NCBI GenBank assembly: GCA_947632155.1
Contig: CANROF010000015.1
Coordinates: 1 to 44,679 of the forward strand
Source: an uncultured Oscillospiraceae bacterium
GTDB lineage: Bacteria; Bacillota; Clostridia; Oscillospirales; Oscillospiraceae
Length of the DNA stretch: 44,679 nt
Direction of reading: 5' to 3'
Below, piece after piece: positions 2,076 to 41,031 of the stretch (its first letter is position 1; the number at the start of each line of letters is the position of its first letter). The notes below the pieces were generated by a model. The model did no database searches. It had not been told where the DNA came from and saw only the letters and a list, made by a program, of their open reading frames with translations. The translations under genes and the position numbers were made by a program.

Positions 2076-2104
2076 TGTCGAAAAAGCCCTGACGGGCTTT
2101 TCCC
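2076..2104 (+). repeat. Family B repeat, fragment B1 (hairpin 1 only)
   Basis: This is the first hairpin of the family B repeat: TGTCG, then AAAAGCCC, loop TGAC, GGGCTTTT. It matches the copy at 25047 base for base up to the distal arm. The distal CGACA is missing and the sequence runs straight into the remnant of a helix-turn-helix gene. The repeat arm and the gene share the bases for L-T-G-F, so this is either a recombination junction or chance similarity at the join. Confidence 0.55.
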
Positions 2105-2460
2105 AGGAGGAGCTGGCGGTGCGGCTCCACGTGGTGCGGCAGACCGTCTCCAAGTGGGAGAAAAACCTGTCCGTCCCCGACGCGGACACGCTCATTAATA
2201 CGAATCCCTGATTAAAAGCTCAAACCGAGCGGCGAGGATTTTTCGCGTCAGACGAGGAAGAGCGCGCAGGGAATACTTTCGTATTTCCAAGCAGGCTGAC
2301 GAAGTATGGCGCGAAAAAGACCGCCGCGAATTTGAGATTTTGATCAGGGATTAGTATAAGCTTTCCGAGGTGCTGGAGGTCAGCGTCAGCGGCCTTTTGG
2401 GCGGGCGGGTGGACGGCGGCCCCTACGGCGGGGTCGAGAGTTTCGCGTTTGCCGGAAGGC
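2089..2460 (+). pseudogene. XRE-type helix-turn-helix regulator, 5'-truncated and split by a MITE
   Basis: The first fragment (2089-2198) encodes LTGFSQEELAVRLHVVRQTV and then SKWEKNLSVPDADTLI, the core of an HTH_3 DNA-binding domain. It is cut by the 158-bp element at 2199-2356. Deleting that element and one copy of its TAA duplication joins the halves in frame, giving DTLI-KLSEVLEVSVSGLLGG, exactly as in intact XRE regulators. The start codon and first helix are missing at the B1 repeat boundary, and the C-terminal part runs into repeat B2 near 2461. The gene is non-functional. Its original target is unknown. Confidence 0.8.
2199..2356 (+). mobile_element. Family A MITE, copy A1 (short form, 158 bp)
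   Basis: The ends are TACGAATCCCTGAT at left and its imperfect complement ATCAGGGATTAGTA at right. A TAA target duplication flanks it (2196-2198 and 2357-2359). Interior blocks such as CGAGCGGCGAGGATTTTTCG and GCAGGGAATAC are shared with the other three copies. It is the most divergent copy and its termini differ (CCCTGAT instead of ATCCATT), so it is probably older. It interrupts an XRE regulator gene. It has no transposase, so movement would need one in trans. Confidence 0.85.
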
Positions 2461-2575
2461 GCGGGCCGTGCGCGGAGCAAAACAGCAGGAGACGGCCTCT
2501 CGAATTCCGCGGAATTCGAGAGGCCGTCTCCGCACGTATCCCCTTGGCATTGAAAGGCGTCAGCCTTTCAAGCCA
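2461..2575 (-). repeat. Family B repeat, copy B2 (hairpins 1, 2 and half of 3)
   Basis: Read on the minus strand, 6 nt after the GH105 stop. Hairpin 1 is TGGC-TTGAAAGGC, loop TGAC, GCCTTTCAA-T-GCCA. Hairpin 2 is a perfect 42-nt palindrome (2489-2530). Only the left arm of hairpin 3 (TGTTTTGCT) remains before the copy ends near 2461. The stems differ from those of the other copies yet still pair. It may act as a terminator or mRNA-stabilising 3' end for the GH105 operon. Confidence 0.75.
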
Positions 2576-2581
2576 GTGCCT

Positions 2582-3724
2582 TTACTCCTCGTCCAGCTCG
2601 CGGCTTAAAAGGTGCTCGGTGTAGCACATCAGGAACGGGGCCACGCCCTTGGCGTCGTTCTCCACCACGGGCTCGGAGATGTAATACTCGTAAGACCCGT
2701 CGCGGCGGCGGTTGTTCTCCGGGCCCAGGCCGGCCACCAGGCATATGCCGCCCAGGTTCAGCTTGCCGTCCCGCTCGGTGAGGTAGCGGTCGCAGATGGA
2801 GCGGAAAATGACCTCGCCGCGCGGGCAGCAGTTGTACTCCAGGATTCCCAGGCGCGCGCCCTTCAGGAAGAAGTAGGCCACCATGGCGCTGCCGGAAGTC
2901 TCCGGGTAGTTGCCCTCCCGGCCGATCTGATTGGGGACCTGGAAGAGCATACCGGTGTCCGGGTCCACATACTTGATGAGGCTGTGGGCCAGCTCCCGGG
3001 CGATGGAGATCATCTCGTTTTTGAAGTCCTCGTGCCCCGGGGCGATGTAGCCGATGACGTCCACCAACGCCGCCGCAAACCACCCCAGGGACCGGAGCCA
3101 CGGATTTTTGCTCTTGCCGTCCTCCCCGGCCCAGAAGGCCTTTTTGGAGGCGTCGTAGCCGTGGCGGTAAAGGCCCGTCTCCGGGTCGAACATCTTCTCG
3201 TGGACGGTGCGGAATTGGCTGCGGATGTCGTCGTAGCCGGCGCAGTTTTCAAATTCCGTGGTGTAGCGGGTGTAAAACACCTGGGCCATATAGAGGCCGT
3301 CCAGCCACACCTGATTGGGGTAGATGGCCTTGTGCCAGAAATTGCCTTCCTCTGTGCGGGGCTGGCGGAGGATCTGGCCGTGGAGGACCTCGATGGCCTT
3401 GCGGTACTTCTCCTTGCCCGTGGCGGCGTAGAGGTCAAAGAGGACCCGGCCCTCGCAGATGTTGTCCAGGTTATAGTCCTCCTCGCTGTAGCCAAGGAGC
3501 GTTCCGTCCTCGTGAACGTAGAAGTCGATGAAATTGTCCACGAAGTCAAAATACCGCTTCTCACCGGTGATGTTGTAGAGATTGAGCAGCGAGATCATCA
3601 TGCAGCCGTCGATATAGTTCCAGCCGTTGATCTTGCCGTCCTTTATCTTCTCAATGTTCCAGAGGGGGGTGCTGGGGGTGGATTCGGCCATGACCCGCTC
3701 TACGTAGCGCTCGATGGTGTTCAT
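2582..3724 (-). CDS. Glycoside hydrolase family 105 (unsaturated rhamnogalacturonyl/uronyl hydrolase)
   Basis: Family GH105 enzymes (YteR/RhiN type) remove the 4,5-unsaturated uronic acid that lyases leave at the non-reducing end of pectin fragments. The 380-residue protein is an (alpha/alpha)6 barrel by homology. The proton-donating aspartate of YteR (Asp143) matches D142 in NQVWLDGLYMAQ. D87 in YNLDNICEGR and H188 in YRHGYD fit other conserved active-site positions, and YPETSGSAMVAY is a family hallmark. The usual WxRGNGW block is altered to NPWLRSLGW, which may shift substrate choice. There is no signal peptide, so it acts in the cytoplasm on imported oligosaccharides. It is the last gene of the kduI operon. 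Exact substrate unknown. Confidence 0.88.
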   Translation of the reverse strand: MNTIERYVERVMAESTPSTPLWNIEKIKDGKINGWNYIDGCMMISLLNLYNITGEKRYFDFVDNFIDFYVHEDGTLLGYSEEDYNLDNICEGRVLFDLYAATGKEKYRKAIEVLHGQILRQPRTEEGNFWHKAIYPNQVWLDGLYMAQVFYTRYTTEFENCAGYDDIRSQFRTVHEKMFDPETGLYRHGYDASKKAFWAGEDGKSKNPWLRSLGWFAAALVDVIGYIAPGHEDFKNEMISIARELAHSLIKYVDPDTGMLFQVPNQIGREGNYPETSGSAMVAYFFLKGARLGILEYNCCPRGEVIFRSICDRYLTERDGKLNLGGICLVAGLGPENNRRRDGSYEYYISEPVVENDAKGVAPFLMCYTEHLLSRELDEE

Positions 3725-3751
3725 CAGTGGTCCTCCTTGTAAAAATCCTTA

Positions 3752-3880
3752 TATTCAATATTTTTCCCGGCGGCACGCGCAGGGCGACAGCAGGGTAAAA
3801 ATTCTGAATTTCGCAAAATTCAGAATTTTTACCCGCACGTTCCCCATTGGCATTGAAAGCCCATCAGGGCTTTCAAGCCA
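3752..3880 (-). repeat. Family B repeat, copy B3
   Basis: On the minus strand it starts at the kduI stop codon itself, since the TGA lies within hairpin 1 (TGGC-TTGAAAGCCC, loop TGAT, GGGCTTTCAA-T-GCCA). Hairpin 2 spans 3793-3834 (42 nt, GGGTAAAAATTC pairing with GAATTTTTACCC). Hairpin 3 keeps only its left arm TGTCGCCC before a shortened end, GGGAAAAATATTG. It fills the kduI-GH105 spacer, where it could protect or terminate part of the transcript and so set the ratio of the two products. Confidence 0.75.
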
Positions 3881-4715
3881 GTTCGTTTGTGGGGATGCCG
3901 TCCATGTCGTCGAAGTCCTGATTTTCGCCGCACATGCCCCAGATAAAGGTGTAATTGGCGGTGCCCACGCCGGTGTGGATAGACCAGCTCGGGGAGATGA
4001 CGGCCTCCTCGTTGTGCATGACGATGTGGCGCGTCTCCTGGCCGGTGCCCATCATGTGGAATACCGCCTGATCCGGGGCCACCTCGAAATAGAGGTAGAC
4101 CTCCATCCGGCGCTCATGGGTGTGGCAGGGCATGGTGTTCCAGACGTTGCCCGGGAGGAGCGCCGTCATGCCCATGGAAAGCTGGCAGCTCTCGCACACC
4201 GCGGGGTGGATGTACTGGCGCAAAATGCGCTCGTTCACCGTCTCCTGGCTGCCCAGGTGGTTGTAGCGGGCCTTCTCCATGGGGATGAGCACGGTGGGGC
4301 AGGTGCGGTGGGCGGGGCTGGAATTTACGTAGAATTTCGCGGGGTCAGACTTATCCTCGGACTTAAAGACCAGCTCCTTGGTGCCCATGCCCACGTAGAT
4401 GCCGTCCTTGGTGCCCACCTTGTATTCCACGCCGTCCAGCACCATGACGCCGGGGCCGCCGATGTTGATGGCGCCCAGCTCCCGGCGCTGGAGGAAATAG
4501 GGGGCCGCCAGCTCCTTAAAGGAGCCCAGGACCAGGTCCTCCTCCACCGGCATGATGCCGCCGGCGATGATGCGGTCCTGGTGGGAGTAGGTGAGGTTGA
4601 TGGAGTCGGGCTCGAAGATGTTGGTGATGAGGTAGTGTCTGCGCAGCTCCGCGGTGTCGTAGCGCTTGGAGTCGTCGGGGTGGTTGGCGTAACGGACGTC
4701 AAAATTGATTTTCAT
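3873..4715 (-). CDS. kduI: 5-dehydro-4-deoxy-D-glucuronate isomerase
   Basis: KduI converts 5-keto-4-deoxyuronate, formed spontaneously from unsaturated uronic acid, to 2,5-diketo-3-deoxygluconate in pectin and glycosaminoglycan catabolism. The 280 residues match the family (about 278). The cupin zinc ligands of the E. coli enzyme (H196, H198, E203, H245) correspond to H198 and H200 in CHTHERRMEVY, E205, and H247 in SIHTGVGT. It is placed directly before GH105, whose product it would consume. Its stop codon is embedded in family B repeat B3. No kduD, kdgK or kdgA homologue lies in this window, so the later steps must be encoded elsewhere. Confidence 0.95.
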   Translation of the reverse strand: MKINFDVRYANHPDDSKRYDTAELRRHYLITNIFEPDSINLTYSHQDRIIAGGIMPVEEDLVLGSFKELAAPYFLQRRELGAINIGGPGVMVLDGVEYKVGTKDGIYVGMGTKELVFKSEDKSDPAKFYVNSSPAHRTCPTVLIPMEKARYNHLGSQETVNERILRQYIHPAVCESCQLSMGMTALLPGNVWNTMPCHTHERRMEVYLYFEVAPDQAVFHMMGTGQETRHIVMHNEEAVISPSWSIHTGVGTANYTFIWGMCGENQDFDDMDGIPTNELA

Positions 4716-4739
4716 TGTGTGTCCTCCTATATGAAAATG

Positions 4740-5597
4740 TTAAACGGTTTTCCAAATCTCTCTCACGGTCTTCACAGCAAAGGGGATGTCCTCGCCGGTG
4801 GTGCCCTCCAGCACTAATATGGCGTTGGGATCGGAGGCCTTGATGCGCCGCAGGATCTCCACTTTGTCAAGGTCGCCCTTGCCGAAGCCCACCTGCTTGG
4901 GCGCCGCGCCGCCGGAGCCCAGCACGCAGTCCTTCATGTGGAAGAACTTGATTCGCCGCCCGAAGAGCTCCAGCCCCCGGTCAAGGATGTCCAGGTACTG
5001 GCGCTGATTGCCGGCGTCCATGTAGTTATATAGGTCAAAGGTGACGTAGACATTGGGCCGCCCCATGCGCCCGATGACCTCGTTCAAGATGTCCGGGCTC
5101 CAGCAGACGTGGCCCGCCGCGCCCTCCATGGCGATGTTGACCCCGTTCTCCGCGGCGATGTCCGCCAGGCGCCCGAAGGTGTCCGCGACTTGCGCGTAGG
5201 CCTCCTCCGTGCGGTTTTTGGGGTTGTAGGTCCACTTGTCGTCGTTATAGGAGCCCGTCTCGCTGCCCACGTACATACAGCCGAAATTGCGGGCCACGCG
5301 AAGGTAGTCCGCGAAAATATCGAAGCACCGCTGCGCCTTGGCGCGGTCGGAGTGTACGGGGTTGAAGTAGGCCCCCAGCAGCAGCGGCGAGGCGTGGCCC
5401 AAATTCAGGGCCGTCCCGATCTCCCGCGCCCGCTCCGGCGTTATGGCCCCGGGGGCGTAGGGGATGTCGTCATAGGACTTGTAGCACACAAGCTGCAGGC
5501 CGTCAAGGCCCAGCTCCCGGACTCTGGCGATGATGCCCTCCGTGCCCCGGACCCCCAGGTCGTGGCCCCGGATGCAGAGGGTGCAGTCAGCTTCCAT
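4740..5597 (-). CDS. Sugar phosphate isomerase/epimerase family (TIM barrel)
   Basis: The protein belongs to the AP-endonuclease-2-like TIM-barrel superfamily, which includes xylose-isomerase-like and IolE/IolI-type enzymes. I see its pattern of metal-ligand regions: an acidic EGAAGHVCWSP segment in the middle, VTFDLYNYMDAGNQ, KFFHMKDCV and a C-terminal VLEGT. The start is the ATG at 5597 (MEADCTLCIRGHD), 7 nt after GAGGAGGG. An upstream in-frame codon at 5645 lacks a binding site and would overlap the operator candidate. The product is 285 residues. It is first in the operon with kduI and GH105, so a role in handling a uronate or ketose is likely, but the reaction cannot be named. Confidence 0.8.
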   Translation of the reverse strand: MEADCTLCIRGHDLGVRGTEGIIARVRELGLDGLQLVCYKSYDDIPYAPGAITPERAREIGTALNLGHASPLLLGAYFNPVHSDRAKAQRCFDIFADYLRVARNFGCMYVGSETGSYNDDKWTYNPKNRTEEAYAQVADTFGRLADIAAENGVNIAMEGAAGHVCWSPDILNEVIGRMGRPNVYVTFDLYNYMDAGNQRQYLDILDRGLELFGRRIKFFHMKDCVLGSGGAAPKQVGFGKGDLDKVEILRRIKASDPNAILVLEGTTGEDIPFAVKTVREIWKTV

Positions 5598-5626
5598 TCG
5601 GTTTCCCTCCTCTTGATGCGGGCGGT

Positions 5627-5647
5627 TTTTGTGCTCTTTGCACAAAA
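5627..5647 (-). promoter_or_regulatory. Palindromic operator candidate of the uronide operon
   Basis: TTTTGTGC-AAAGA-GCACAAAA is a perfect inverted repeat with 8-bp arms. It lies between the -10 box and the ribosome binding site, where a bound repressor would block elongation. The regulator is unknown. The AraC protein encoded nearby is one possibility, but AraC sites are usually direct repeats, so a LacI/GntR-type repressor encoded elsewhere may fit better. Confidence 0.55.
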
Positions 5648-5665
5648 TTAGCCCATTATTTTATA

Positions 5666-5694
5666 ATTATACCGCCACAATACATATTAATCCA
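5666..5694 (-). promoter_or_regulatory. Promoter of the isomerase-kduI-GH105 operon
   Basis: On the minus strand there is a perfect TATAAT (5666-5671). A poor -35, TGGATT (5689-5694), lies 17 bp upstream. The weak -35 suggests dependence on an activator, such as the nearby AraC-type protein. The start of transcription would be near 5659, just before the palindrome at 5627-5647. Confidence 0.6.
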
Positions 5695-5733
5695 TAGCTT
5701 TTTCGATACTGCTTATTCACAAAACGGACCTGA

Positions 5734-5992
5734 TACGAATATCCATTTAAAATGAGACACCGAGCGGCGAGGATTTTTCGTGTCAGGCAAGGAAGACGCC
5801 GCAGGGAATACCCATTGGTATTTCCAAGGCGGCTGACGCATCCGGGGTCCCCGGCGGGCAAAGCCCGCTGGGGAGAGGAGGAGCGATGCCAGCGCCTGAG
5901 GGCGAATACTTGGAGCCCGAGGCAAAGCGGCATCAGCGACGACGACGTGAAAAAGTCCGGCGCGAATGTCTTTTTTTAAGTGGATATTCGTA
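5734..5992 (+). mobile_element. Family A MITE, copy A2 (long form, 259 bp)
   Basis: The ends are TACGAATATCCATTTAAA and TTTAAGTGGATATTCGTA. A TGA duplication flanks it (5731-5733 and 5993-5995). It carries an extra 101 bp relative to the short form, inserted after GGCGGCTGACGC. It lies 3 bp past its duplication from the araC stop and upstream of the promoter of the uronide operon. Copy A3 at 7637-7895 is its near-identical inverted partner, also 259 bp. Confidence 0.9.
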
Positions 5993-5998
5993 TGAGAG

Positions 5999-6763
5999 CT
6001 ACACCGTCCTGGTTTTCTCCGCCCGGTTGCGCTTGGCGAAGGCCGAGGGCGAACAGCCGAAGTGCTTATTGAAGACCCGGGAGAAGTAGAGGGGGTCCGA
6101 GTAGCCGCACATCTCCGCCACCTCCGCCACCGAGTAGTCCCGGCTCCAGGAGGAGGAGAGCATACTCTCCGCCTTCTTCATCCGAAGGCCCGTCATGTAC
6201 TCCAGGGGGGTGACGCCCACCTCCTTTTTGAAGAGCTTCCTGAGGTAGTCGTAATGGAACGGAAGCTGGCGGATGGCGGCGTCCAGCGCGAAGTCCGGCT
6301 GGGTGTAGCTGTGCATGATCTTTACGCGTATCTGCTCCACGGGCTCGGAGAAGCCGGAATTGGAGAGATATACCATGAGGTAGCTTGCGATGAGGTCCCC
6401 CAGGGCCTCCAGCACCAGCTCGCGTTTTGTGATGTCGGCCTGGTAGTAATAACGGGCCTCGCTGAAGGTGAAGCGGAAACGGCCGTCGGCGGAGTCGGAC
6501 ACCCGGAACGGGCTCTTGGAGTGAAAGGCCGTGGCGTCCATGCGCATGTGGATATTCGTAAAGCCGTCGGTGGAGGAGTTGGCGTGTAGGGCCCTGGGCG
6601 GGATGGCCACCACGTCCCCCTCCTTATAGTTGATGGTGGAGCCGTTCTCGAATTTGAAGGCCCCCTCGCCACCGGTGCAGTACACCAGCTCCCACTCCTC
6701 GTGGGTGTGCCACACCACGTCGTAGGTCTTGGCGTGCTCGCCCACATAGAGGACTGAATTCAT
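5999..6763 (-). CDS. AraC family transcriptional regulator with cupin sensor domain
   Basis: The N-terminal half (about residues 1-90) is a cupin-type sugar-sensing domain (HTHEEWELVYCTGGEGAF, then GDVVAIPPRALHAN). The C-terminal 100 residues carry two helix-turn-helix motifs of the AraC/XylS family, including EVAEMCGYSDPLYFSRVFNK and FGCSPSAFAKR. The start is the ATG at 6763, 7 nt after GGGAGG, giving 254 residues. The longer open frame upstream reads through the esterase gene. The ATG overlaps the esterase stop as ATGA, so the two are translationally coupled. It probably activates one or both carbohydrate operons here in response to a uronide or sugar. Confidence 0.9.
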   Translation of the reverse strand: MNSVLYVGEHAKTYDVVWHTHEEWELVYCTGGEGAFKFENGSTINYKEGDVVAIPPRALHANSSTDGFTNIHMRMDATAFHSKSPFRVSDSADGRFRFTFSEARYYYQADITKRELVLEALGDLIASYLMVYLSNSGFSEPVEQIRVKIMHSYTQPDFALDAAIRQLPFHYDYLRKLFKKEVGVTPLEYMTGLRMKKAESMLSSSWSRDYSVAEVAEMCGYSDPLYFSRVFNKHFGCSPSAFAKRNRAEKTRTV

Positions 6764-7617
6764 ACGTTTACCTCCCCGTCGTGTATCGCAAGTCCCATCT
6801 CGTTGAAAAAGCCCATCATAAGCTCCGGCCAGCCCGTGACGCCGCCGCTGACCGCGGGCAGATCGCCCTGGACGTTGGTGATGATGTCCGCGGTGGCCAG
6901 CCCGTGGCGCCCGTGGGGGAAAATATGGAGGGCAAAGGGCACTCCGGCATCCTCCAGGGCCTGCGCCAGCACGAGGCTGTTGCGGCAGGGCACGGCCCGG
7001 TCGTCCCGGGTGTGCCACAAAAACACGGGACACATATCCGGCCGGACCAATTTGTCTATACTCAGCCTTTCCCAAAGCGCGCTGTCGCCGCCGGTGAGAT
7101 TTTGAAAGCTCCCGGCATGGGTCCGGCCGTGGCTCACCGCCACGGGGTAGCACAGCCCCAAAGCGTCGGGCCGTATGAGCTCCGGGGCGGCGATATCCGA
7201 CACCTCCGGCGCGTCAAACAGCGTCCCCAGCGTCCCGGCCAGGTGCCCGCCCGCCGAAAAGCCCACGGCCGCCAGCATGTGCGGGTCCACCCCCATGTCC
7301 GGGGCGTTTTTCCGCAGGTGCGCCATGGCCGCCGCGGCCTCCCGCAGGGCCGTGGGGAACAGGTGGGGCGCGCAGGAGTACTCCAGCACGAAGGCCGCCC
7401 AGCCCATGGCGCAGAATTTCAGGGCGATGGGCTCCGCCTCCCTGGGGGAACAGTGGGTGTAGCCCCCGCCGGGGAGTATCAGCGCCCCCGGCCGCAGCCG
7501 CCCTCCGGCGCCCGCCATGTCCGGCCCCTCCGGCACGTATGCCGTCAGCGTCCCGGCGGCGCCCCGGGGTCTTGGCAGCCCCGTCAAGTCGTAAATATCC
7601 CGTTTCCCAGTCCTCAT
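6760..7617 (-). CDS. Alpha/beta-hydrolase esterase (acetyl-xylan/BD-FAE type)
   Basis: A 285-residue alpha/beta hydrolase of the Aes/BD-FAE group, which removes acetyl or feruloyl groups from plant oligosaccharides. Visible features are the oxyanion-hole PGGGY near residue 50, the nucleophile elbow GFSAGGH (Ser121), an aspartate in HTRDDRAVP (about 205) and the histidine in FPHGRHGLA (about 238). No signal peptide is present, so it acts inside the cell. The start is the ATG at 7617, preceded by AAGGTGAG with 8 nt after the AGG. The GTG at 7626 has no binding site. It is coupled to araC and lies only 19 nt from the end of MITE copy A3. Its substrate is inferred from the pectin-type neighbours. 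Confidence 0.82.
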   Translation of the reverse strand: MRTGKRDIYDLTGLPRPRGAAGTLTAYVPEGPDMAGAGGRLRPGALILPGGGYTHCSPREAEPIALKFCAMGWAAFVLEYSCAPHLFPTALREAAAAMAHLRKNAPDMGVDPHMLAAVGFSAGGHLAGTLGTLFDAPEVSDIAAPELIRPDALGLCYPVAVSHGRTHAGSFQNLTGGDSALWERLSIDKLVRPDMCPVFLWHTRDDRAVPCRNSLVLAQALEDAGVPFALHIFPHGRHGLATADIITNVQGDLPAVSGGVTGWPELMMGFFNEMGLAIHDGEVNV

Positions 7618-7636
7618 GTCTCTCACCTTATACTAA

Positions 7637-7895
7637 TACTAATATCCAATTAAAATAAGCCATTCGCGCCGGACTTTTTCGCGTCGTCGTCGCTGATGCC
7701 GCTTTGCCTCGGGCTCCAAGTATTCGCCCTCAGGCGCTGGCATCGCTCCTCCTCTCCCCAGCGGGCTTTGCCCGCCGGGGACCCCGGCGGCGTCAGCCGC
7801 CTTGGAAATACCAATGGGTATTCCCTGCGGCGTCTTCCTTGCCTGACACGAAAAATCCTCGCCGCTCGGTGTCTCATTTTAAATGGATATTAGTA
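7637..7895 (-). mobile_element. Family A MITE, copy A3 (long form, 259 bp, inverted relative to A2)
   Basis: The ends are TACTAATATCC and GGATATTAGTA with longer imperfect arms. A TAA duplication flanks it (7634-7636 and 7896-7898). It is nearly identical to A2 along its whole length but in the opposite orientation, 1,644 bp away. It is inserted between the promoter at 7952-7980 and the esterase ribosome binding site, so it forms most of the 5' leader of the esterase-araC mRNA. Confidence 0.9.
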
Positions 7896-7951
7896 TAATA
7901 TTCCCGGCCAATTTATCCATGTTGCTTTTCCAAAACGTCCATTCTGTCCCT

Positions 7952-7980
7952 ATAATAACGCATTATTCCTTTCAAGTCAA
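7952..7980 (-). promoter_or_regulatory. Promoter of the esterase-araC operon
   Basis: On the minus strand TTGACT (7975-7980), 17 bp, TATTAT (7952-7957). Transcription starting near 7945 has to pass through the 259-bp MITE before reaching the esterase at 7617. No better promoter is visible in the 19 bp between the MITE and the gene. Confidence 0.65.
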
Positions 7981-7998
7981 CGCTAAATTTGCCATTAC

Positions 7999-8030
7999 GC
8001 AAAAACCGCCCGATTTCGGGCGGTTTTTGC
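7999..8030. terminator. Bidirectional rho-independent terminator after the rluD-like gene
   Basis: The stem CCGCCCG/CGGGCGG with loop ATTT is flanked by AAAAA on one side and TTTTT on the other, so it can work on both strands. It lies 3 nt after the stop codon of the pseudouridine synthase gene and ends the ileS-lspA-rluD transcription unit. Confidence 0.9.
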
Positions 8031-8033
8031 AAA

Positions 8034-25002: not shown

Positions 25003-25046
25003 AGCCAAATGGCCCCGCCCCGCCGTCCCCCAAAGAGCATTCAGCC

Positions 25047-25218
25047 TGTCGAAAAAGCCCTGACGGGCTTTTCCGACAAGGGGGACGTGCGGGAAATTTT
25101 CGCTGAATTTTGCGAAATTCAGCGAAAACTTCCCTGCTGTCGCCCTGCGCGCGCCCCACAGGGGCACACTTGGGCGACAAAAGGGATTTTTTTCAAGGCA
25201 CATGTCCTTGAAAAAAAT
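25047..25218 (+). repeat. Family B repeat, full copy B25
   Basis: It starts 45 nt after the CPBP stop. Hairpin 1 is TGTCG-AAAAAGCCC, loop TGAC, GGGCTTTT-C-CGACA. Hairpin 2 spans 25091-25134. Hairpin 3 has outer stem TGTCGCCC/GGGCGACA enclosing a CCCC-ACA-GGGG stem. Hairpin 4 is ATTTTTTTCAAGG, loop CACATGT, CCTTGAAAAAAAT. A MITE (A4) follows 72 bp later. The 25003-25518 interval contains no gene. Confidence 0.8.
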
Positions 25219-25290
25219 ATTGAATTTGAGTTTTTTGACAAACTGGAGCATTTCCGTTGGTCACGAGTACAGCGAGATCACCGGTTTTCA

Positions 25291-25448
25291 TACTAATATC
25301 CATTTAAAATGAGACACCGAGCGGCGAGGATTTTTTGTGTCAGGCAAGGAAGACGCCGCAGGGAATACTTTATGTATTTCCAAGGCGGCTGACGCAGCCG
25401 GGCGCGAAAAATCCGGCGCGAATGGCTTATTTTAATTGGATATTAGTA
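25291..25448 (+). mobile_element. Family A MITE, copy A4 (short form, 158 bp)
   Basis: The ends are TACTAATATCCATTTAAA and AATTGGATATTAGTA. A TCA duplication flanks it (25288-25290 and 25449-25451). It has the same length as A1 and lacks the 101-bp block of A2 and A3, with GGCGGCTGACGC joined to GCCGGGCGCGAAAAA. Its sequence is close to A2 and A3, so the short and long forms look recently related. Confidence 0.9.
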
Positions 25449-25463
25449 TCACATCGATATTTG

Positions 25464-34274: not shown

Positions 34275-34322
34275 GTTTTTCTTTTCCTCCTTGATCAGAG
34301 TTACCGCGTTGGCGGTTCAGGC

Positions 34323-34367
34323 GGCGAGGTATCCACGGCAATGCTGGATTGCCGCGGACCTTTCGCC
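34323..34367 (-). promoter_or_regulatory. Structured spacer between rpsN and rpsH
   Basis: On the minus strand GGCG-aaa-GGT-CCGCGGCAAT, a 5-nt loop, ATTGCCGTGG-at-ACC-t-CGCC forms one long interrupted helix with ten contiguous pairs (one G-U). A small CCGC/GCGG hairpin follows before the rpsH binding site. The position suggests a control element for rpsH, perhaps a binding site for S8. This is inference. Confidence 0.5.
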
Positions 34368-34396
34368 ATCCTATTTACAAAATTAAGTCGCGGGAG

Positions 34397-34582
34397 TTAC
34401 CAAGACGCTTTCTTGACTCCGGGAATCTCGCCCTTATAGGCCAGCTCCCGGAAGCAGATGCGGCAGATGCCGTAGTTTCTGAGGTAGGCGTGGGGGCGGC
34501 CGCAGATCTTGCAGCGGTTGTACTTGCGGGTGGAGAACTTGGGGTCGCGCTGCTGCTTGAGCTTCATTGATGTCTTAGCCAT
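34397..34582 (-). CDS. rpsN: 30S ribosomal protein S14, zinc-binding type Z
   Basis: A 61-residue S14 of the short zinc-binding type, with [20 protein letters not shown] supplying four cysteine ligands and the end [12 protein letters not shown]. It helps fold the 30S head. It follows rplE in the spc operon, the usual place for the primary S14 of Gram-positives. Confidence 0.97.
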
Positions 34583-34598
34583 TTAATTTCTCCTCCCT

Positions 34599-35141
34599 TC
34601 AATTCCTGTAAAACGGGGCGCCCAGCATGGTGAGAAGCTCGCGGGCCTCCTCGTCGGTGTTGGCGGTGGTGCACATCACGATGTCCATACCGCGGATCTT
34701 GTCGATCTTGTCGTAGTCGATCTCGGGGAATATGAGCTGCTCCTTGATGCCCAGGGCGTAGTTGCCGCGGCCGTCAAAGGAGTTGGGGTTGATGCCGTGG
34801 AAGTCGCGCACACGGGGCAGGGCCACGTTGAAAAGGCGGTCCAAAAACTCCCACATGCGGTCCCGGCGGAGGGTGACCTTCACGCCGATGTTCATACCCT
34901 CGCGGATCTTGAAGTTGGCCACGGACTTCCGGGCCTTGGTGACCACGGCGTGCTGGCCGGCGATGGCGGAGATCTCCTTCACCACGTTCTCGGTGACCTT
35001 GGCGTTGTCGCGGGCGTCGCCGCAGCCAACGTTGATGACGATCTTCTCAAGGCGGGGGATCTGCATGACGCTCTTGTAGCCGAACTTCTTCATGAGGGCG
35101 GGAGCGATCTCGTCCTGGTATCTGGTTTTAAGTCTGGGCAT
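34599..35141 (-). CDS. rplE: 50S ribosomal protein L5
   Basis: L5 binds 5S rRNA and contacts the P-site tRNA. The 180 residues contain [20 protein letters not shown] (usually NxGxGEA), [40 protein letters not shown] and the end [10 protein letters not shown]. Standard position between rplX and rpsN. Confidence 0.98.
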
Positions 35142-35155
35142 GATCTATCCTCCCT

Positions 35156-35461
35156 TTATATGGCGGCGCCGCACTTTTTGCAGGCGCGGACCTTTTTGTC
35201 GCCGTCCATCTTGTGGCCGACGCGGGTGGGCTTGCCGCACTTGGGGCACACGAGCATGACCTTGGAGACATAGATGGGCGTCTCCTTCTTGATGATCTCG
35301 CTCTGCTCCTCCTGACGGCGGGCCTTCTGATGGCGCTTGGCAACGTTGACTCCCTGGACGATGACCTTGCGGCCCTCGGGGTCCGCGGAGAGGACCTTGC
35401 CCTGCTTGCCCTTGTCCTTACCGGACAGGACGACGACTGTGTCGTTGGTTCTTATTTTCAT
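35156..35461 (-). CDS. rplX: 50S ribosomal protein L24
   Basis: L24 starts large-subunit assembly. The KOW motif is in VVVLSGKDKGKQGKVLSADP. The C-terminal part carries two CxxC pairs (CPKCGKPTRVGH and CKKCGAA), which could hold a zinc ion, as in a subset of bacterial L24 proteins. Length 101 residues. Confidence 0.97.
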   Translation of the reverse strand: MKIRTNDTVVVLSGKDKGKQGKVLSADPEGRKVIVQGVNVAKRHQKARRQEEQSEIIKKETPIYVSKVMLVCPKCGKPTRVGHKMDGDKKVRACKKCGAAI

Positions 35462-35474
35462 TGTTCGGACCTCC

Positions 35475-35843
35475 TCATATGACTTCGGGAGCCAGGGACA
35501 GGATCTTCATGTAGTCCTTGTCGCGGAGCTCTCTGGCCACCGGCCCGAAGATGCGGGTGCCCACGGGGTTCTTGTCGTCGCGGATGAGCACCGCGGCGTT
35601 CTCGTCGAAGCGGACGTAGGTACCGTCGGCGCGGCGGACGCCCTTGGCGGAGCGGACGATGACGGCCTTCACCACGTCGCCCTTCTTCACCTGGCCGCCG
35701 GGGGACGCCTTGCGGACGGAGGCCACGATGACGTCGCCTATGTTGCCCCACTTGCGCTTGGCGCCGCCAAGCACGCGGATGCACTTGATCTCCTTGGCGC
35801 CGGTATTGTCGGCGACCTTCAGATAAGTTTCCTGCTGTATCAT
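35475..35843 (-). CDS. rplN: 50S ribosomal protein L14
   Basis: L14 lies at the subunit interface and forms bridges to 16S rRNA. The 122-residue sequence starts [20 protein letters not shown] and has [20 protein letters not shown] and [12 protein letters not shown]. It matches the family length exactly. Confidence 0.98.
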
Positions 35844-35856
35844 TTATGCCGCCTCC

Positions 35857-36120
35857 TTACTTCGCCTTTTCTACGATCTCAACAAGGCGCCATCTCTTGT
35901 CCTTTGACAGGGGGCGAGTCTCCATGACGCGGACGGTATCGCCGACGCCGCACTCATTGTTCTCGTCATGGGCCTTGAGCTTGTAGGTTCTCTTGACTAT
36001 CTTCTTGTAGAGGGGGTGGGCCACACGGTCGGCAATGGCCACAACGATGGTCTTGTCCATCTTGTCGGATACGACCTTGCCCACCAGAGTCTTCCGGGAA
36101 GACGTTCTAACTTCACTCAT
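35857..36120 (-). CDS. rpsQ: 30S ribosomal protein S17
   Basis: S17 is a small OB-fold protein that organises 16S rRNA at the base of the body. The 87 residues have the signature [20 protein letters not shown] and the [20 protein letters not shown] motif. Located between rpmC and rplN with AGGAGGAA in front. Confidence 0.98.
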
Positions 36121-36134
36121 TTAAGCTTTCCTCC

Positions 36135-36329
36135 TCACTGCTCCAGCTCGTGCTGGCGGATGACTGTCTGGACACGGGCAATGTCCTTTTTGACCTGAGA
36201 GATCCTGATGGGGTTGTCGAGCTGGTTGGTGGCGTGCTGCATCCGGAGCGTGAACAGGTCCTTTTTAAGGTCAACGAGCTTGGCCTGGAGCTCCTCAGCG
36301 CTCATCTTTCTGACTTCTTGTGCCTTCAT
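36135..36329 (-). CDS. rpmC: 50S ribosomal protein L29
   Basis: L29 lies at the polypeptide exit. The 64-residue helical hairpin is MKAQEVRKMSAEELQAKLVD followed by LKKDLFTLRMQHATNQLDN. The start is the ATG at 36329, 8 nt after AGGAGGG, one base before the rplP stop. An in-frame codon eight residues upstream lies within rplP and lacks a site. Confidence 0.97.
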   Translation of the reverse strand: MKAQEVRKMSAEELQAKLVDLKKDLFTLRMQHATNQLDNPIRISQVKKDIARVQTVIRQHELEQ

Positions 36330-36330
36330 C

Positions 36331-36753
36331 TCATTCACCCTCCTCGATCTCACGGGCGACTATCTTGGTCTTGCAGGGCAGCTTGTGGGCGCCAAGGCGC
36401 AGGGCCTCGTGGGCGTCCTCAGCGGAAACGCCGGCGATCTCGAAAAGGACCCTGCCGGGCTTGACCACGGCCACCCAATATTCGGGCGCGCCTTTACCGG
36501 AACCCATACGAGTCTCGGCGGGCTTGGCGGTGACGGGCTTGTCGGGGAATATCTTTATCCACACCTTGCCGCCGCGCTTGTTGTAACGGGTGATGGCCAC
36601 ACGGGCGGCCTCGATCTGGTTGGAGGTGATCCACGCCGGCTCCGTTGCCACCAGGCCCCAATCGCCGTAGGTGACGGTGTTTCCGCGGGTAGCCACGCCG
36701 GTCATGCGGCCGCGCTGCTGCTTGCGGTACTTTACTCTCTTAGGTAACAGCAT
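36331..36753 (-). CDS. rplP: 50S ribosomal protein L16
   Basis: L16 contacts the A-site tRNA elbow and is needed for the peptidyl-transferase centre to mature. The 140 residues include [40 protein letters not shown] and the end [13 protein letters not shown]. Its ATG overlaps the rpsC stop as TGATG, indicating coupled translation. Confidence 0.98.
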
Positions 36754-37586
36754 CAGTTAGCTCCTCCTTCTCTGGGAGTGTTGCCCTGGGGACGCGGGCC
36801 CCTGGACGGATAGCCGCCCTGGGGGCGCGGGCCGCTCTGCCGGTCGCGGTTGTAGCCCTGGCCCTGGGGACGGGGACCCCGGCGGTCGTCCCGGCGCTCG
36901 CGGCGCTCACGGGGGGGACGGCTGGTGTCCATGGTGCGGGGCGTGGTACGGAGGGTCTGGGAGAGGATCTCGCCCTTGTAGATCCACACCTTGACGCCGA
37001 TGCGGCCGTAGGTCGTGGCGGCCTCGGCAAAACCGTACTCGATGTCGGCGCGGAGGGTCTGCAGGGGGATGGTGCCCTCGTGATAGCTCTCGTTGCGGGC
37101 GATCTCGGCGCCGCCGATACGGCCGGAGAGCTTGACCTTGATGCCGCGGACGCCCAGGCGCATGGCGCGGGACATGGCGTTCTTCATGGCGCGGCGGTAG
37201 CTGGCGCGCTTCTCAAGCTGCGCGGCGATGCTCTCAGCCACGAGCTGGGCGTCGGAGTCGGGATTCTTGACCTCGATGATGGAGATGTCCACCTTCTTGC
37301 CAAGCATCTTCTCCATGTCGGCGCGGAGCTTCTCGATCTCCTGGCCGCCCTTGCCGATGACAAGGCCGGGACGGGAACAATGCAGGAAGATCTTGACCTT
37401 GGCGCTGTCGCGCTCGATCTCGATCTTGGGCACGCCGGCGTCATAGAGGCGCTTTTTCAGGTATTTACGGATCTTGTGGTCCTCGACGATGAGGTCGCCG
37501 ACCTTGTCGTCTCTGGCGTACCAGCGGGAATCCCAGTCCTTGATAACGCCCACGCGAAGTCCGTGAGGATTAACTTTCTGTCCCAT
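36753..37586 (-). CDS. rpsC: 30S ribosomal protein S3 with extended C-terminal tail
   Basis: S3 lines the mRNA entry channel. The KH domain ([20 protein letters not shown]) and the C-terminal domain ([20 protein letters not shown], then [16 protein letters not shown]) are normal to about residue 217. The 277-residue protein then continues for some 60 residues with a low-complexity Arg/Gly/Pro/Gln tail ([20 protein letters not shown] and repeats of GPRPQG). Typical Firmicutes S3 ends near 218-220. The tail is in the same frame, uses ordinary codons and ends exactly where rplP begins, so it is not a sequencing frameshift. Confidence 0.97.
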
Positions 37587-37588
37587 GC

Positions 37589-37927
37589 TTACGCCTCCCT
37601 TTCCTTAAGAACGATGGTGATGTGGCTTGTGCGCTTGTTGATCCTGTAGCCGCGGCCCTTGGAGACAGGCTGCATCCTCTTGAGGATGGGTCCGGGGTTG
37701 GCGTAAGTCTCACTGACGTAGAGCTTCGCCGGGTCCATGCTGAAGTTGTTCTCGGCGTTGGCAATGGCGGAGTTCAGGACCTTGACCATGATCTCGCTGG
37801 CGGCCTTGGGGGTGTTCATCAGAATGGCGCGGGCCACATTGGCGTCCTTGCCCCGGATGAGATCGCAGACGATCGTGCATTTGCGGGGGGAGATACGCGC
37901 GTATTTGATCTGTGCTCTTGCTTCCAT
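37589..37927 (-). CDS. rplV: 50S ribosomal protein L22
   Basis: L22 lines the exit tunnel with its long beta-hairpin. The 112 residues include [20 protein letters not shown], the [20 protein letters not shown] block, and the tunnel hairpin [20 protein letters not shown]. The rpsC ATG follows 2 nt after its... its own stop precedes nothing else: rpsC starts downstream at 37586. Confidence 0.97.
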
Positions 37928-37938
37928 GTCTGTCCTCC

Positions 37939-38217
37939 TTATTTCGCCGCGGCGGTCTTGCTGCCGGAGTGCCCGCGGAAGGTCCGCGTCGGGGCGAACT
38001 CGCCCAGCTTGTGGCCCACCATGTCCTCGGTGACGTACACGGGGATGTGGCGGCGGCCGTCGTGGACGGCGATGGTGTGTCCGACGAAGGAGGGGAATAT
38101 GGTGGACGCCCGGCTCCAGGTCTTCAGGACCTTCTTCTCGCCGGTCTTGTTCATCTCGTCAACTCTCTTCAAAAGCTCAGGAGCCGCGAAGGGTCCCTTT
38201 TTGATACTTCTGCTCAT
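37939..38217 (-). CDS. rpsS: 30S ribosomal protein S19
   Basis: S19 forms a complex with S13 in the small-subunit head. The 92 residues match the family ([20 protein letters not shown], then [38 protein letters not shown]). It lies between rplB and rplV with AAGGAGGG. Confidence 0.98.
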
Positions 38218-38232
38218 TTATTCAGTCCCTCC

Positions 38233-39069
38233 TTACTTCGAGTTGCGGCGCTTGACTATGAACTTATCTGTGCGGTTCTTAGTCTTGCGGGTCTTATAGC
38301 CCAGAGCCGGCTTACCCCAGGGGGTAACGGGGCCGGGACGGCCAACGGGCGCCTTGCCCTCGCCGCCGCCGTGGGGGTGGTCAACGGGGTTCATGACGGA
38401 GCCGCGGACGGTGGGCCGGATGCCCATGTGGCGGACGCGGCCGGCCTTGCCCAGATGGACGTTGGCGTGGTCGATGTTGCCCACCTGGCCGATGCTGGCC
38501 ATGCAGTCGAGCCGGATATACCGGTACTCGCCGGAGGGGAGCCTCACCTGAGCCATGCCGTTCTCCTTGGCCATGAGCTGGGCGGCGGAGCCGGCGGAGC
38601 GCACGAGCTGCGCGCCGCGTCCGGGGTAGAGCTCGATGTTGTGGACGACGGTGCCCACGGGGATGTTGGCAAAGGGCAGGGCGTTGCCGGGCTTGATGTC
38701 GGCGTTGGGGCCGCTCATGACGGTGTCGCCGGCCTTGAGGCCCACGGGAGCCACGATGTAGCGGTGCTCGCCGCCCTCAAACTCCACCAGCGCGATGTAG
38801 GCGGAGCGGTTGGGGTCGTACTCCAGTCTGAGGACGGTGCCGGGGACGTCAACGTTCTCGCGCTTGAAGTCGATGACGCGGTACTTCCGGCGGTTGCCGC
38901 CGCCCTTGTGGCGGACGGTGATGTGGCCGTAGCTGTTGCGGCCGGAGTGCTTCTTCAGCACCTCGGTGAGGGCCCGCTCGGGCTTTGCCTTCTTATCGAC
39001 TCCGTCAAAGCCGGAGACGGACATGTGCCTTCTTGACGGAGTGGTGGGTTTATAGAATTTTATAGCCAT
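38233..39069 (-). CDS. rplB: 50S ribosomal protein L2
   Basis: L2 supports the peptidyl-transferase centre and subunit joining. The 278-residue product carries the conserved [20 protein letters not shown] loop with the key histidine, and the N-terminal [20 protein letters not shown]. Length and position are standard. Confidence 0.98.
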
Positions 39070-39085
39070 TTTCTCTTATCCTCCC

Positions 39086-39382
39086 TTATACCATTCCCTC
39101 AAAGAATTCGATGGCCTTGGAGTCTTTTGTGAGCCGGACCACGGCCTTTTTCCAGGTGCGGGTCGTCCCCTCGGGGTAACGGCCGGTGCGCTTGGCCTTG
39201 CCGTGGACGTTCAGCGTGTTCACGCTGTCAACCTTGACGCCGAAGATCTCCTCGACAGCCTTTTTGACGTCGGCCTTTGTGGCGTCCTTTGCCACCTCAA
39301 AGGCGTACTTCTTGAGGTCGATGGCCTCCATGGACTGCTCGGTGATGATGGGGCGAAGGATAATATCATAAGAGGTCTTCAT
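39086..39382 (-). CDS. rplW: 50S ribosomal protein L23
   Basis: L23 surrounds the tunnel exit and is the docking site for trigger factor and SRP. The 98 residues have [20 protein letters not shown] and [20 protein letters not shown] and [20 protein letters not shown]. Its ATG overlaps the rplD stop by 4 nt (ATGA). Confidence 0.98.
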
Positions 39383-40005
39383 CTGGCATATACCTCCTCG
39401 ATTTTCTCGAGAGCCGCCTTGTCAACGACCAGCTTGTCGGCGTTGATGAGGTCGTAGGCGCTCAGGATGTTGGCGGGAGTGGTCACCACGCCGGGGATGT
39501 TCCTGGCGGAGAGGACCACGTTCTTATCGACCTCATTCGTGACGACGACGGCCTTTTTGGAGGCGCCGACCTTGTCCATGAAGGTCTTGAAGGTCTTGGT
39601 CTTGGGCTCGCTCATGGAAAGTCCGTCCACCACGATGACGTTCTCCCCATTGGCCTTGTCGGAAAGAGCGGAGAGGATGGCGAGGCGCCGGACCTTCTTG
39701 TTGACGGAGAAGCCGTAATCCCGGGGCTTGGGGGCGAAGGCCACGCCGCCGTGGGTCCAGTGGGGGTTGCGGGTGCTGCCCTGACGGGCGCGGCCGGAGC
39801 CCTTCTGGCGCCAGGGCTTGATGCCGCCGCCGCTGACCTCGGCCTTGGTGAGGGAGCTCTGGGTCCCCTGACGCAGGTTGGCCAAGTGGCTGCGGACTAC
39901 GGTGTGCATGGCGGGGACGTTGGGCTCAACGCCGAAAACGGCCTCGGAGAGCTCGATCTGCCCTGTGACCTCTCCGGCCATGTTGTAAACATTTGCTTTA
40001 GGCAT
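39379..40005 (-). CDS. rplD: 50S ribosomal protein L4
   Basis: L4 extends a long loop into the exit tunnel ([20 protein letters not shown], then [18 protein letters not shown]). The 208 residues match the family. In E. coli L4 also represses the S10 operon; whether this happens here cannot be judged from sequence alone. It is translationally coupled to rplW. Confidence 0.98.
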
Positions 40006-40023
40006 ATTTCAATCTCTCCTTTC

Positions 40024-40728
40024 TCAGCCACGGGCGGACCGCTTCTGCGGGTTGGAGCTGACGGTCTGGGCCGGGCCCTTGACCTTGCTGCGGTTGATGA
40101 CCGTGTTCTTCAGGTACACGATGCCGCCCTTGGGGCCGGGCACCGCGCCGCGGACGGCGATCATGTTGAGCTCGGGGTCGATGTGGACGATGTCCAGATT
40201 CTGGACGGTGACCTGCTCCGCGCCCATGTGGCCGGCGCCGATCTTGCCCTTGTAGATGCGGGAGGGGGTGGAGGTGGAGCCCATGGAGCCGGCGTGACGG
40301 TGAACGGGGCCGCCGCCGTGGCTGGTGGGGGTCCGCTGGGCGTTGAAGCGCTTGATGGCGCCCTGGTAGCCCTTGCCCTTGCTGACGCCGGTGATATCGA
40401 CCTGATCGCCCTTCTGGAACATATCGGCCTTTATCTCGTCGCCGACCTCGAATTTGGAGCAGTCCGCAAGGCGGAACTCCTTGAGGTGCTTTTTGAGCTC
40501 CGTGCCGGCCTTCTTCAGGTGCCCGGCCTCGGGCTTTGTCAGCTTGCGCTCGGGGACGTCCTCGAAGCCAAGCTGGATGGCGTCATAGCCGTCCTTGTCG
40601 GCGGTCTTGACCTGCGTCACGACGCAGGGGCCGGCCTCGATGACAGTGACGGGAACGACTTTTCCGGCTTCATCGAAGATCTGGCTCATGCCGACCTTTT
40701 TGCCGATGATGACCTTTTGCATTTCCAT
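40024..40728 (-). CDS. rplC: 50S ribosomal protein L3
   Basis: L3 is an early assembly protein that reaches the peptidyl-transferase centre. The 234-residue protein begins [20 protein letters not shown] and has the conserved [20 protein letters not shown] and [15 protein letters not shown]. The length is above the usual 206-210 because of an added segment in the middle (about residues 65-85, [14 protein letters not shown]) and the tail. A second ATG two codons in could also start it. AAGGAAGG lies in front. Unusually, 321 bp separate it from rpsJ. Confidence 0.97.
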
Positions 40729-40759
40729 TGCTATCTATTCCTTCCTTTAAAGGTTATTG

Positions 40760-40836
40760 GTCGGCGGCCTGGGCTCTTAGCAACCGTAAGCTCTTCCGCC
40801 GACTTGACCCTGTGCGCTTAACGCAAGTCGCGCACA
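40760..40836 (-). promoter_or_regulatory. Structured leader before rplC with pseudoknot potential
   Basis: On the minus strand the order is TGTGCGC (P1), GACTTG (P2), GCGCACA (P1'), CAAGTC (P2'), so the two helices interlock as an H-type pseudoknot. Next is a hairpin CGGCGG/CCGCCG that encloses a CTTA/TAAG helix and shares three bases with P2'. The rplC binding site follows. This could be an autoregulatory leader or the remaining part of the original rpsJ-rplC spacer. Confidence 0.45.
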
Positions 40837-40854
40837 ATGGGTGTAAACTTAAAC

Positions 40855-41031
40855 TGTCGAAAAAGCCTTGACAGGCTTTTTCCGACAAGGGGAACGTGCG
40901 GGAATTTTTTCTGAATTTTGCGAAATTCAGAAAAATTTCCCTGCTGTTTTGCTCCGCGCACGGCCCGCAGGGCCGCACACTTAAGCAAAACAAAAGGTAT
41001 TTTTTCCGACGCGCATGTCGCCGGAAAAAAT
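40855..41031 (+). repeat. Family B repeat, full copy B40 inside the S10 operon
   Basis: All four hairpins are present. Hairpin 1 is TGTCG-AAAAAGCCT, loop, AGGCTTTTT-C-CGACA. Hairpin 2 spans 40900-40941. Hairpin 3 has outer stem TGTTTTGCT/AGCAAAACA around GGCCC/GGGCC. Hairpin 4 is ATTTTTTCCG, loop CGCATGT, CGGAAAAAAT. Stems 1, 3 and 4 differ from copy B25 by paired changes. Its orientation is opposite to transcription of the operon. It lies between rpsJ and rplC, adjacent genes that are closely packed in most genomes. Confidence 0.8.

What the first reader, a model, noticed from the sequence alone, without database searches (positions are those of the whole stretch)
2076..41031. Family B: a modular four-hairpin repeat whose stems covary between copies
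Seen directly in copies at 2076, 2461, 3752, 25047 and 40855. Hairpin 1 stems differ (TTGAAAGGC/GCCTTTCAA, TTGAAAGCCC/GGGCTTTCAA, AAAAGCCC/GGGCTTTT, AAAAAGCCT/AGGCTTTTT) around a TGAC/TGAT loop. Hairpin 3 is TGTCGCCC/GGGCGACA in one copy and TGTTTTGCT/AGCAAAACA in another. Hairpin 4 is TTTCAAGG/CCTTGAAA or TTTTTCCG/CGGAAAAA around a conserved CRCATGT loop. Paired changes on both arms with stable linkers (AACGTGCGGG, CCCTGCTGT) are the mark of selection for base pairing. I do not recognise this as a described RNA or repeat class.
Basis: partly seen in the sequence, partly recalled or inferred. Interest (0 to 1): 0.82.

Follow-up and report, generated by a model that had tools for sequence, protein, structure and literature searches.

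The report
Mobile hairpin element that duplicates terminators
The repeat is a short mobile DNA element of gut bacteria that inserts at hairpins such as transcription terminators, often duplicating the whole hairpin, and its folded core has kept its stems paired while their sequence changed.

Summary
The full copy (window 25042-25245, 204 bp) has imperfect terminal inverted repeats, CAGnnTGTCRAAAAA. This 2.5-Mb genome has 84 exact core copies. Of 69 copies with both ends, 34 have direct repeats within 3 bases of both ends (0 of 1,352 cross-pairings); 26 are 18-34 bp, mostly one whole palindrome, terminator-like by eye, once parS-like. A congener carries an IS1182-family insertion sequence with the same ends and a duplicated 31-bp palindrome. 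So this is an IS1182-type MITE inserting at stem-loops. Inside, 33 of 52 pairs show two-sided changes. A covariance model hits 32 of 34 genus genomes and 35 of 295 order genomes, 20 genera besides its own; no Rfam family matches. What the fold does is unknown; a role in the element's own spread is my guess. Most novel: a DDE transposon family with a conserved structural RNA.

The parts
25035..25041 (.). left target site duplication GAGCATT of the full copy B1
TTTTTTGACAAACTG
25246..25252 (.). right target site duplication GAGCATT of B1
25047..25078 (-). hairpin 1 of B1; its outer arm is also part of the left terminal inverted repeat
25089..25137 (-). hairpin 2 of B1 (most variable stem; CGCA tetraloop on the RNA-sense strand)
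25138..25179 (-). hairpin 3 of B1 with conserved asymmetric internal loop and variable apical mini-hairpin
25186..25218 (-). hairpin 4 of B1 (U-tract/A-tract stem, CATG-type loop)
40852..41033 (+). copy B2 with all four hairpins, right end lost; lies between the ribosomal S10 and L3 genes, RNA-sense strand = operon sense
3752..3882 (-). copy B3: hairpins 1 (3849-3881) and 2 (3790-3836) intact, 3/4 remnants; orthologous copy in a congener (L164) with different but paired stems
2461..2577 (-). copy B4: hairpins 1 (2546-2576) and 2 (2485-2533), partial hairpin 3
2072..2104 (+). copy B5: truncated fragment, left end and hairpin 1 only

Best explanation
Family B is a non-autonomous transposable element (MITE) moved by an IS1182-family DDE transposase through the ends CAGnnTGTCRAAAAA. 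The transposase joins the element ends at the 5' feet of a stem-loop in the target, such as a terminator-like hairpin or the parS-like palindrome. Repair then leaves one complete hairpin on each side, which gives long duplications of variable length. Shown: the ends, the copy number, the palindromic direct repeats at the ends, a site empty in two congeners, and an IS1182-type insertion sequence in the genus with the same ends and the same kind of duplication. Inferred: that this transposase moves Family B, and the strand-transfer geometry. The interior is a conserved four-hairpin fold constrained on one strand (the window's minus strand for B1 and B2), most likely as RNA. Inferred: the fold serves the element's own propagation, because copies lie at random orientation to neighbouring genes. 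Its biochemical role is not shown.
For: Copy number and ends. Direct repeats within 3 bases of both ends, up to 12% mismatch: 34 of 69 copies with both ends score >=7, against 0 of 1,352 cross-pairings; in the printed list of 31 with score >=8, 22 sit with no offset. Of the 34, 26 are 18-34 bp with mean stem 8.8 bp against 3.8 in shuffles. Of the 69, 32 have a hairpin of at least 6 bp at both ends (45 left, 44 right; shuffled left flanks 2%). Empty site: parS-like target of L084, element absent in congeners L144 and L195. Partner IS: L272 in the same genus, 477-aa tnp, NF033551 IS1182 at 385 bits (cut-off 270), ends CAGTTTGTCAAAAAA, identical 31-bp palindrome in direct orientation on both sides. 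Distant copies: 20 of 40 fetched have flanking repeats above the shuffled maximum, and by my loose reading 15 of these 20 start with a CAGnnTGTC-type end. Published precedent: IS1272 (IS1182 family) targets stem-loops, and whole-stem-loop duplication is drawn as 'pathway b' (PMC5678879, section 22 and passages read). Fold. Random gene orientation, 61 of the 69 copies scored. Spread: 32 of 34 genus genomes and 35 of 295 order genomes.
Against: No IS with matching ends was found in the window's own genome: six of its seven PF13751 hits belong to an IS with GGGGCTGTGAAAA-type ends, and the seventh starts GGGACTGTGAAAA. The congener G020 has 78 scored matches but no PF13751 hit. Only one partner IS (L272) has a clean duplication. 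L273, in another genus, has the same palindrome on both sides but with the loop inverted, so not a direct repeat; L274, L275 and L276 show no matching palindrome on both sides by eye. 35 of 69 copies show no such repeat; several have two similar but unequal hairpins. Strand bias: in the distant set it is not significant under loose scoring (53 G.U:37 A.C, p 0.11) or at the stricter thresholds 8-10; against the flanking-hairpin control (12 A.C:7 G.T) Fisher p is 0.12; an earlier, cruder count of unpaired columns leaned the same way as the stems (30:18, p 0.11; against the stems Fisher p 0.03). No convincing promoter was found in the one copy scanned (one 9-of-12 match) and no expression data were available.
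Confidence: 0.75

Rival explanations
1. The stems are kept paired by DNA-level processes: template switching that copies one arm onto the other (quasi-palindrome correction), or a need for DNA cruciforms in transposition. No RNA is involved.
For: Many partner changes fall on the same branch (139, out of 234 changes on the left and 202 on the right side). Flanking target hairpins also differ on both arms between the two sides of some copies. The wobble bias against flanking hairpins is not significant. Cruciforms are invoked in the IS1272 model (PMC5678879, passages).
Against: Cruciform needs and arm repair are strand-symmetric, whereas the surviving mismatches are not: A.C 61 against G.T 14, with distinct linker transitions 10:10. 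Unpaired linkers, the internal loop and loop motifs stay largely fixed across species, which arm repair does not predict.
Confidence: 0.25
2. It is a host regulatory or terminator-like RNA element kept for the genes beside it, and the mobile ends are secondary.
For: Hairpin 1 resembles a terminator by eye. Copies lie close to genes (median gaps 37 and 44 bases by a longest-frame rule). One copy beside a GH88-type gene is orthologous between species with paired stems in both.
Against: Orientation to neighbours is random: 18, 17, 13 and 13 in the four classes of 61. Copies carry target duplications, and 19 of 34 genus genomes have 50-78 scored matches.
Confidence: 0.08
3. It is a REP/BIME-type repeat moved by a RAYT (Y1 HUH) transposase.
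For: Imperfect palindromes, intergenic, high copy.
Against: Two-ended inverted repeats and target duplications are not features of RAYT/REP as I recall them. A DDE IS with the same ends exists in the genus. RAYT genes were not searched for.
Confidence: 0.02
4. It is a SINE-like retroelement, inserted by target-primed reverse transcription.
For: Variable-length duplications, and one 5'-truncated copy with a 12-bp repeat (L100).
Against: No RVT_1 hit in the genome; copies truncated at the other end exist too; inverted-repeat ends shared with a DDE IS.
Confidence: 0.02

Closest known systems
IS1272 and the IS1182 insertion sequence family
   Same: Transposase family of the candidate partner (NF033551); targets are stem-loops of unrelated sequence (PMC5678879: abstract, section 22 and passages read).
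   Different: IS1272 is reported to replace the stem-loop, with no duplication. Here the whole stem-loop is duplicated in many copies, a case that paper only draws as a possible pathway. Family B encodes no transposase.
Bacterial MITEs with stable folds: BOX, RUP, SPRITE, QMITE, Nezha
   Same: Short, non-autonomous, intergenic, inverted-repeat ends, target duplications, folded transcripts (passages of PMC10969869 and PMC3049150).
   Different: IS1182, 'covari' and 'RNA secondary' do not occur in the main text of the review PMC10969869. Here stems are replaced while linkers are fixed, with a single-strand bias and whole-hairpin duplications.
MRSC-65-2 and other 'mobile/repeat sequence candidates' (PMC11109978)
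   Same: High-copy structured motif with strong covariation, thought selfish (passages read).
   Different: MRSC-65-2 is one long stem with a UYCCGG repeat from diverse phyla. This is four different hairpins with fixed linkers. Whether it is among that study's 250 mobile/repeat candidates could not be checked (supplements not available).
REP / BIME palindromic repeats
   Same: Intergenic palindromes, high copy; insertion sequences target them (PMC1525189, search listing only).
   Different: About 200 bp with two defined ends, target duplication and a multi-hairpin conserved core.

Membership tests
MITE | short, no transposase gene | tested here: met
   204 bp, no transposase gene; open frames across it exist, but hairpin 2 length variants of 36-38 bases argue against coding
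MITE | terminal inverted repeats | tested here: met
   CAGnnTGTCRAAAAA at both ends, imperfect; also, by a loose reading, at 15 of 20 distant 5' boundaries
MITE | target site duplication | tested here: met
   34 of 69 copies, null 0 of 1,352; empty site
MITE | autonomous partner with the same ends | tested here: inconclusive
   found in congener G117 (L272) but not in the window's genome
IS1182 family (mobilising enzyme) | IS1182-type transposase | tested here: met
   L272 protein, NF033551 385 bits over cut-off 270; for the partner IS, not for Family B itself
IS1182 family (mobilising enzyme) | transposase acts on Family B ends | not testable with these tools
   needs a transposition assay
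Rfam families | score at or above a family's gathering cut-off | tested here: not met
   none on an element in the window or in the 20 fetched loci searched at the cut-off (two hits in L346 lie beside the element); 7 loci at E up to 1 gave nothing near a cut-off
REP/RAYT | no target duplication, Y1 transposase (recalled) | tested here: not met
   target duplications present; RAYT genes not searched
MRSC-65-2 | single long stem with UYCCGG repeat | tested here: not met
   four hairpins; paper passages
retroelement | reverse transcriptase in the genome | tested here: not met
   0 RVT_1 hits, positive in 3 of 14 control genomes

The most novel reading that the evidence does not exclude
An order-wide family of DDE (IS1182-type) transposons carries a conserved structural RNA that takes part in transposition, for example by holding the transposase or helping it find stem-loops. 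This would be RNA-assisted, structure-directed insertion outside the RNA-using families that I recall (IS110, IS200/IS605, CAST).
Probability: 0.15. Interest if true: 0.92.

Novelty: new variant of a known kind. Interest (0 to 1): 0.74.

Why it matters
Dozens of matches per genome in 19 of 34 genomes of a gut genus, and relatives in 20 further genera of its order, make this an abundant structured repeat that no Rfam family covers. Its duplications supply many natural examples of whole-stem-loop duplication, a mode only proposed for IS1182-type transposition, so structure-directed target choice becomes directly testable. Such an insertion doubles a terminator-like hairpin, or even a parS-like site. 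The strand-specific constraint asks whether a DNA transposon family depends on an RNA.

Tried and rejected
Retroelement idea: raised by the variable duplications and a 5'-truncated copy, dropped after no RVT_1 and the shared ends with a DDE IS. Own-genome IS1182 as partner: rejected, ends differ. A first mutation spectrum mixed flanks and mis-folded columns (paired 57:62, unpaired 30:18) and was replaced by linker anchors, first counted per copy (40:37; Fisher p 1.5e-4), then as distinct events, the fairer comparison (10:10, p 0.008). Exact-pattern distribution (7 of 300 genomes) misled: two of the seven were coding-like matches without a hairpin, and it missed most congener matches; the covariance model replaced it. 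The viral scan gave 19 loci; the only one to pass the pairing filter (L228) I judged chance. Peptide reading of the element: considered, disfavoured by 1- and 2-base length steps in hairpin 2. The IS1182-type gene of G118 (L263), a genome placed in the same genus as the Flavonifractor-like G022, had no matching ends. Paper searches listed no description of this element; supplements could not be searched. Corrections: an earlier count said about 22 of 40 distant copies with repeats, the call gives 20; entries 2 and 4 give some duplications before anchoring and call L273's a target duplication, which one search corrects.

Rows dropped: alignment A1 holds 56 of the 70 references listed; I left out 14 own-genome rows by hand to cut redundancy. 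L228 was left out of the counts. Copies lacking a recognisable end were not among the 69; orientation was scored for 61 of 69. Stems were measured without the small offsets allowed.
Full report
Observation. Two are complete in hairpins (25042-25245 and 40852-41033); 2461 and 3752 are inverted and partial; 2076 is a fragment. In the window's own genome (2.50 Mb, 89 contigs) the core pattern occurs 84 times and its reversed control 0 times. Clustering the hits of four searches gave 122 copies or fragments. RNA folding z-scores of the two complete copies are -8.25 and -6.40.

Boundaries. Lining up copies shows an element of about 200 bp: CAG(CC)TGTCGAAAAA, hairpin 1, GGGGAACGTGCG, hairpin 2, TGCTG, hairpin 3, ACAAAAGG, hairpin 4, TATTGAATTTGAG, TTTTTTGACAA(A/C)CTG. 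The two ends form an imperfect inverted repeat, CAGnnTGTCRAAAAA. Copy 25042-25245 is flanked by the 7-bp repeat GAGCATT on both sides.

Target duplications. For 69 own-genome copies with both ends, 34 have a direct repeat lying within 3 bases of both ends and allowing up to 12% mismatch (score >=7), against 0 of 1,352 cross-pairings of flanks; at score >=6 the cross-pairings give 0.4%. Twenty-six are 18-34 bp. Their longest stems average 8.8 bp against 3.8 in letter shuffles, and the hairpin covers 85% of the repeat on average; 21 of the 26 have stems of at least 7 bp, which 1.7% of shuffles reach. They look like terminators by eye; no terminator predictor was run on them. One is a parS-like palindrome (the name parS is recalled). 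At that locus two congeners (L144, L195) have the palindrome(s) but no element: the empty site. The other 35 copies show no such repeat; some have two similar but unequal hairpins.

Enzyme. The genome has no RVT_1 hit but seven PF13751 hits, whose ends start GGGGCTGTGAAAA (six) or GGGACTGTGAAAA (one), not the Family B end. In a same-genus genome (G117, locus L272) a 477-aa IS1182-family transposase (NF033551, 385 bits, cut-off 270) lies in an IS whose ends are CAGTTTGTCAAAAAA on both sides, flanked by the same 31-bp palindrome left and right in direct orientation. In another genus L273 has an IS1182-type gene with CAGACTGTCGAA-type ends and the same palindrome on both sides, but with its loop inverted. 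L274, L275 and L276 have related ends without matching palindromes by eye. IS1272, of the same family, was reported to target stem-loops, and the authors drew whole-stem-loop duplication as one possible outcome of joining at the 5' feet (PMC5678879; abstract, section 22 and passages read). Family B matches that drawn outcome. That this enzyme moves Family B is inference from the shared ends.

Fold. Pairing is 97.6% of cells against 84.0% in shuffles and 40-62% when slid, and no shuffle of 500 reaches the observed covariation; the structure was derived from this same alignment, which favours it over the slid versions. On a FastTree tree there are 130 compensatory same-branch changes, against a mean of 4.1 (maximum 19) for shuffled partners and 6-21 for slid ones; copies may recombine, so the tree is approximate. 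The window copy at 3752 has an orthologue in L164 (80% identity over about 3 kb); both lack the right end, and their stems differ but pair, with one mismatch by eye in hairpin 2 of L164.

Which strand. A.C there is G.U on the other strand, so that strand, as RNA or single-stranded DNA, seems to be the constrained molecule. Stricter scoring gives 29 G.U to 6 A.C in the genus, and 16 to 2 in distant genera at threshold 7 (p 0.001) but 9:2, 6:2 and 3:2 at thresholds 8-10, not significant. Loose scoring of the distant set gives 53 to 37 (p 0.11). The flanking-hairpin control is 12 A.C to 7 G.T, not significantly different from the stems, and a cruder count of unpaired columns leans the same way, 30:18. 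I rate the RNA reading likely, not proven.

Context. Left and right neighbours, scored by the longest open frame on each side, are oriented at random (18, 17, 13, 13 of 61), which argues against a role in the neighbours' mRNAs. The 40852 copy lies between ribosomal S10 and L3 genes, with the constrained sense on the operon strand.

Spread. A covariance model (R1) finds 32 of 34 genomes of the genus at E <= 0.001; 19 of them have 50-78 scored matches, where at most 78 were scored, and some weak matches may be the antisense of the same copy. In the order, 35 of 295 genomes and 21 of 148 genera match; own genus apart, 32 genomes and 20 genera. At most 8 candidates per genome were scored there, E-values are rough, a few genomes have only weak hits (down to E 1e-4), and many matches run over the whole model while skipping parts of it; best outside the genus is 81 bits. 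Of 40 distant copies fetched, 20 have flanking repeats above the shuffled maximum of 12; 17 of these are 26-40 bp and hairpin-like by eye, one is 70 bp and two are 13 bp. By a loose reading 15 of the 20 begin with a CAGnnTGTC-type end. One carrier, G022, has the same match coordinates as Flavonifractor sp. An112. No Rfam family reaches its cut-off on an element tested.

Mechanism. Most likely the IS1182-type enzyme cuts out or copies the element at CAGnnTGTC ends and joins the two 3' ends at the 5' feet of a target stem-loop, so that gap repair leaves a hairpin on each side. The internal fold probably acts for the element itself. The step from fold to function is open: it could bind the transposase, limit it, or serve as an sRNA. 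ISPpu9, another palindrome-targeting IS, is controlled by two sRNAs (PMC8450116, abstract read).

Novelty. MITEs, IS1182 elements and stem-loop targeting are known. This element, its order-wide folded core, its strand-biased covariation and its catalogue of whole-hairpin duplications were not found in the paper searches, which cover one open-access library. PMC11109978 reports 250 mobile/repeat candidates, which I could not check one by one.

Noticed in passing
window 2198-2357, 5733-5993, 7636-7896, 25290-25449: A second repeat of about 260 bp with ends ATACTAATATCC ... GGATATTAGTAT, also in a congener (L154, 85-87% identical); looks like another MITE.
   Followed up: no
L084 around 1278-1520 (G000:C40): A Family B copy has duplicated a parS-like palindrome (ATGTTTCACGTGAAACAT), so the site now has an extra copy; two congeners have the empty site.
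   Followed up: partly
L115, L118 (C35, C41) and L018 (C5:71.9 kb): Another IS1182-type element (GGGGCTGTGAAAA ends) sits at Family B right ends, and in L018 a related end has replaced half of hairpin 1: palindromes of Family B seem to be targets themselves.
   Followed up: partly
L273 at 553-586 and 2107-2140: The palindromes on the two sides of this IS1182-type element are the same except that the loop is inverted (AGAT against ATCT), as if one stem-loop had been flipped.
   Followed up: partly
L014, L056, L085; congeners L125, L144, L150, L174, L194, L205, L217, L288, L289, L299: The apex of hairpin 3 sometimes holds an extra multi-hairpin domain, by my reading about 70-130 nt, recurring between species.
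   Followed up: no
L327, L329, L322 and other Flavonifractor-type copies: An additional 5' hairpin (CTCGGCAGAGTTTTGCCGCCCGCAGGCGGCAAAA in some copies) precedes hairpin 4 on the RNA-sense strand.
   Followed up: no
L290, L300: Subfamily in which both terminal repeats carry TGTCGGCAAAG instead of TGTCGAAAAAG, suggesting adaptation to a different transposase.
   Followed up: no
L041: Fragment of the left end inside a duplicated terminator-like hairpin, joined at a short shared GGCGGGCTTTT stretch; looks like a recombination product.
   Followed up: no
window 25241-25214 (-): Sigma-70-like match TTGTCA-16-TATTTT reading from the right end into the element on the RNA-sense strand (9 of 12); it would start inside hairpin 4, so it is doubtful.
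   Followed up: no
L346 (G080): A 6S RNA and an ssnA motif flank this distant copy.
   Followed up: no
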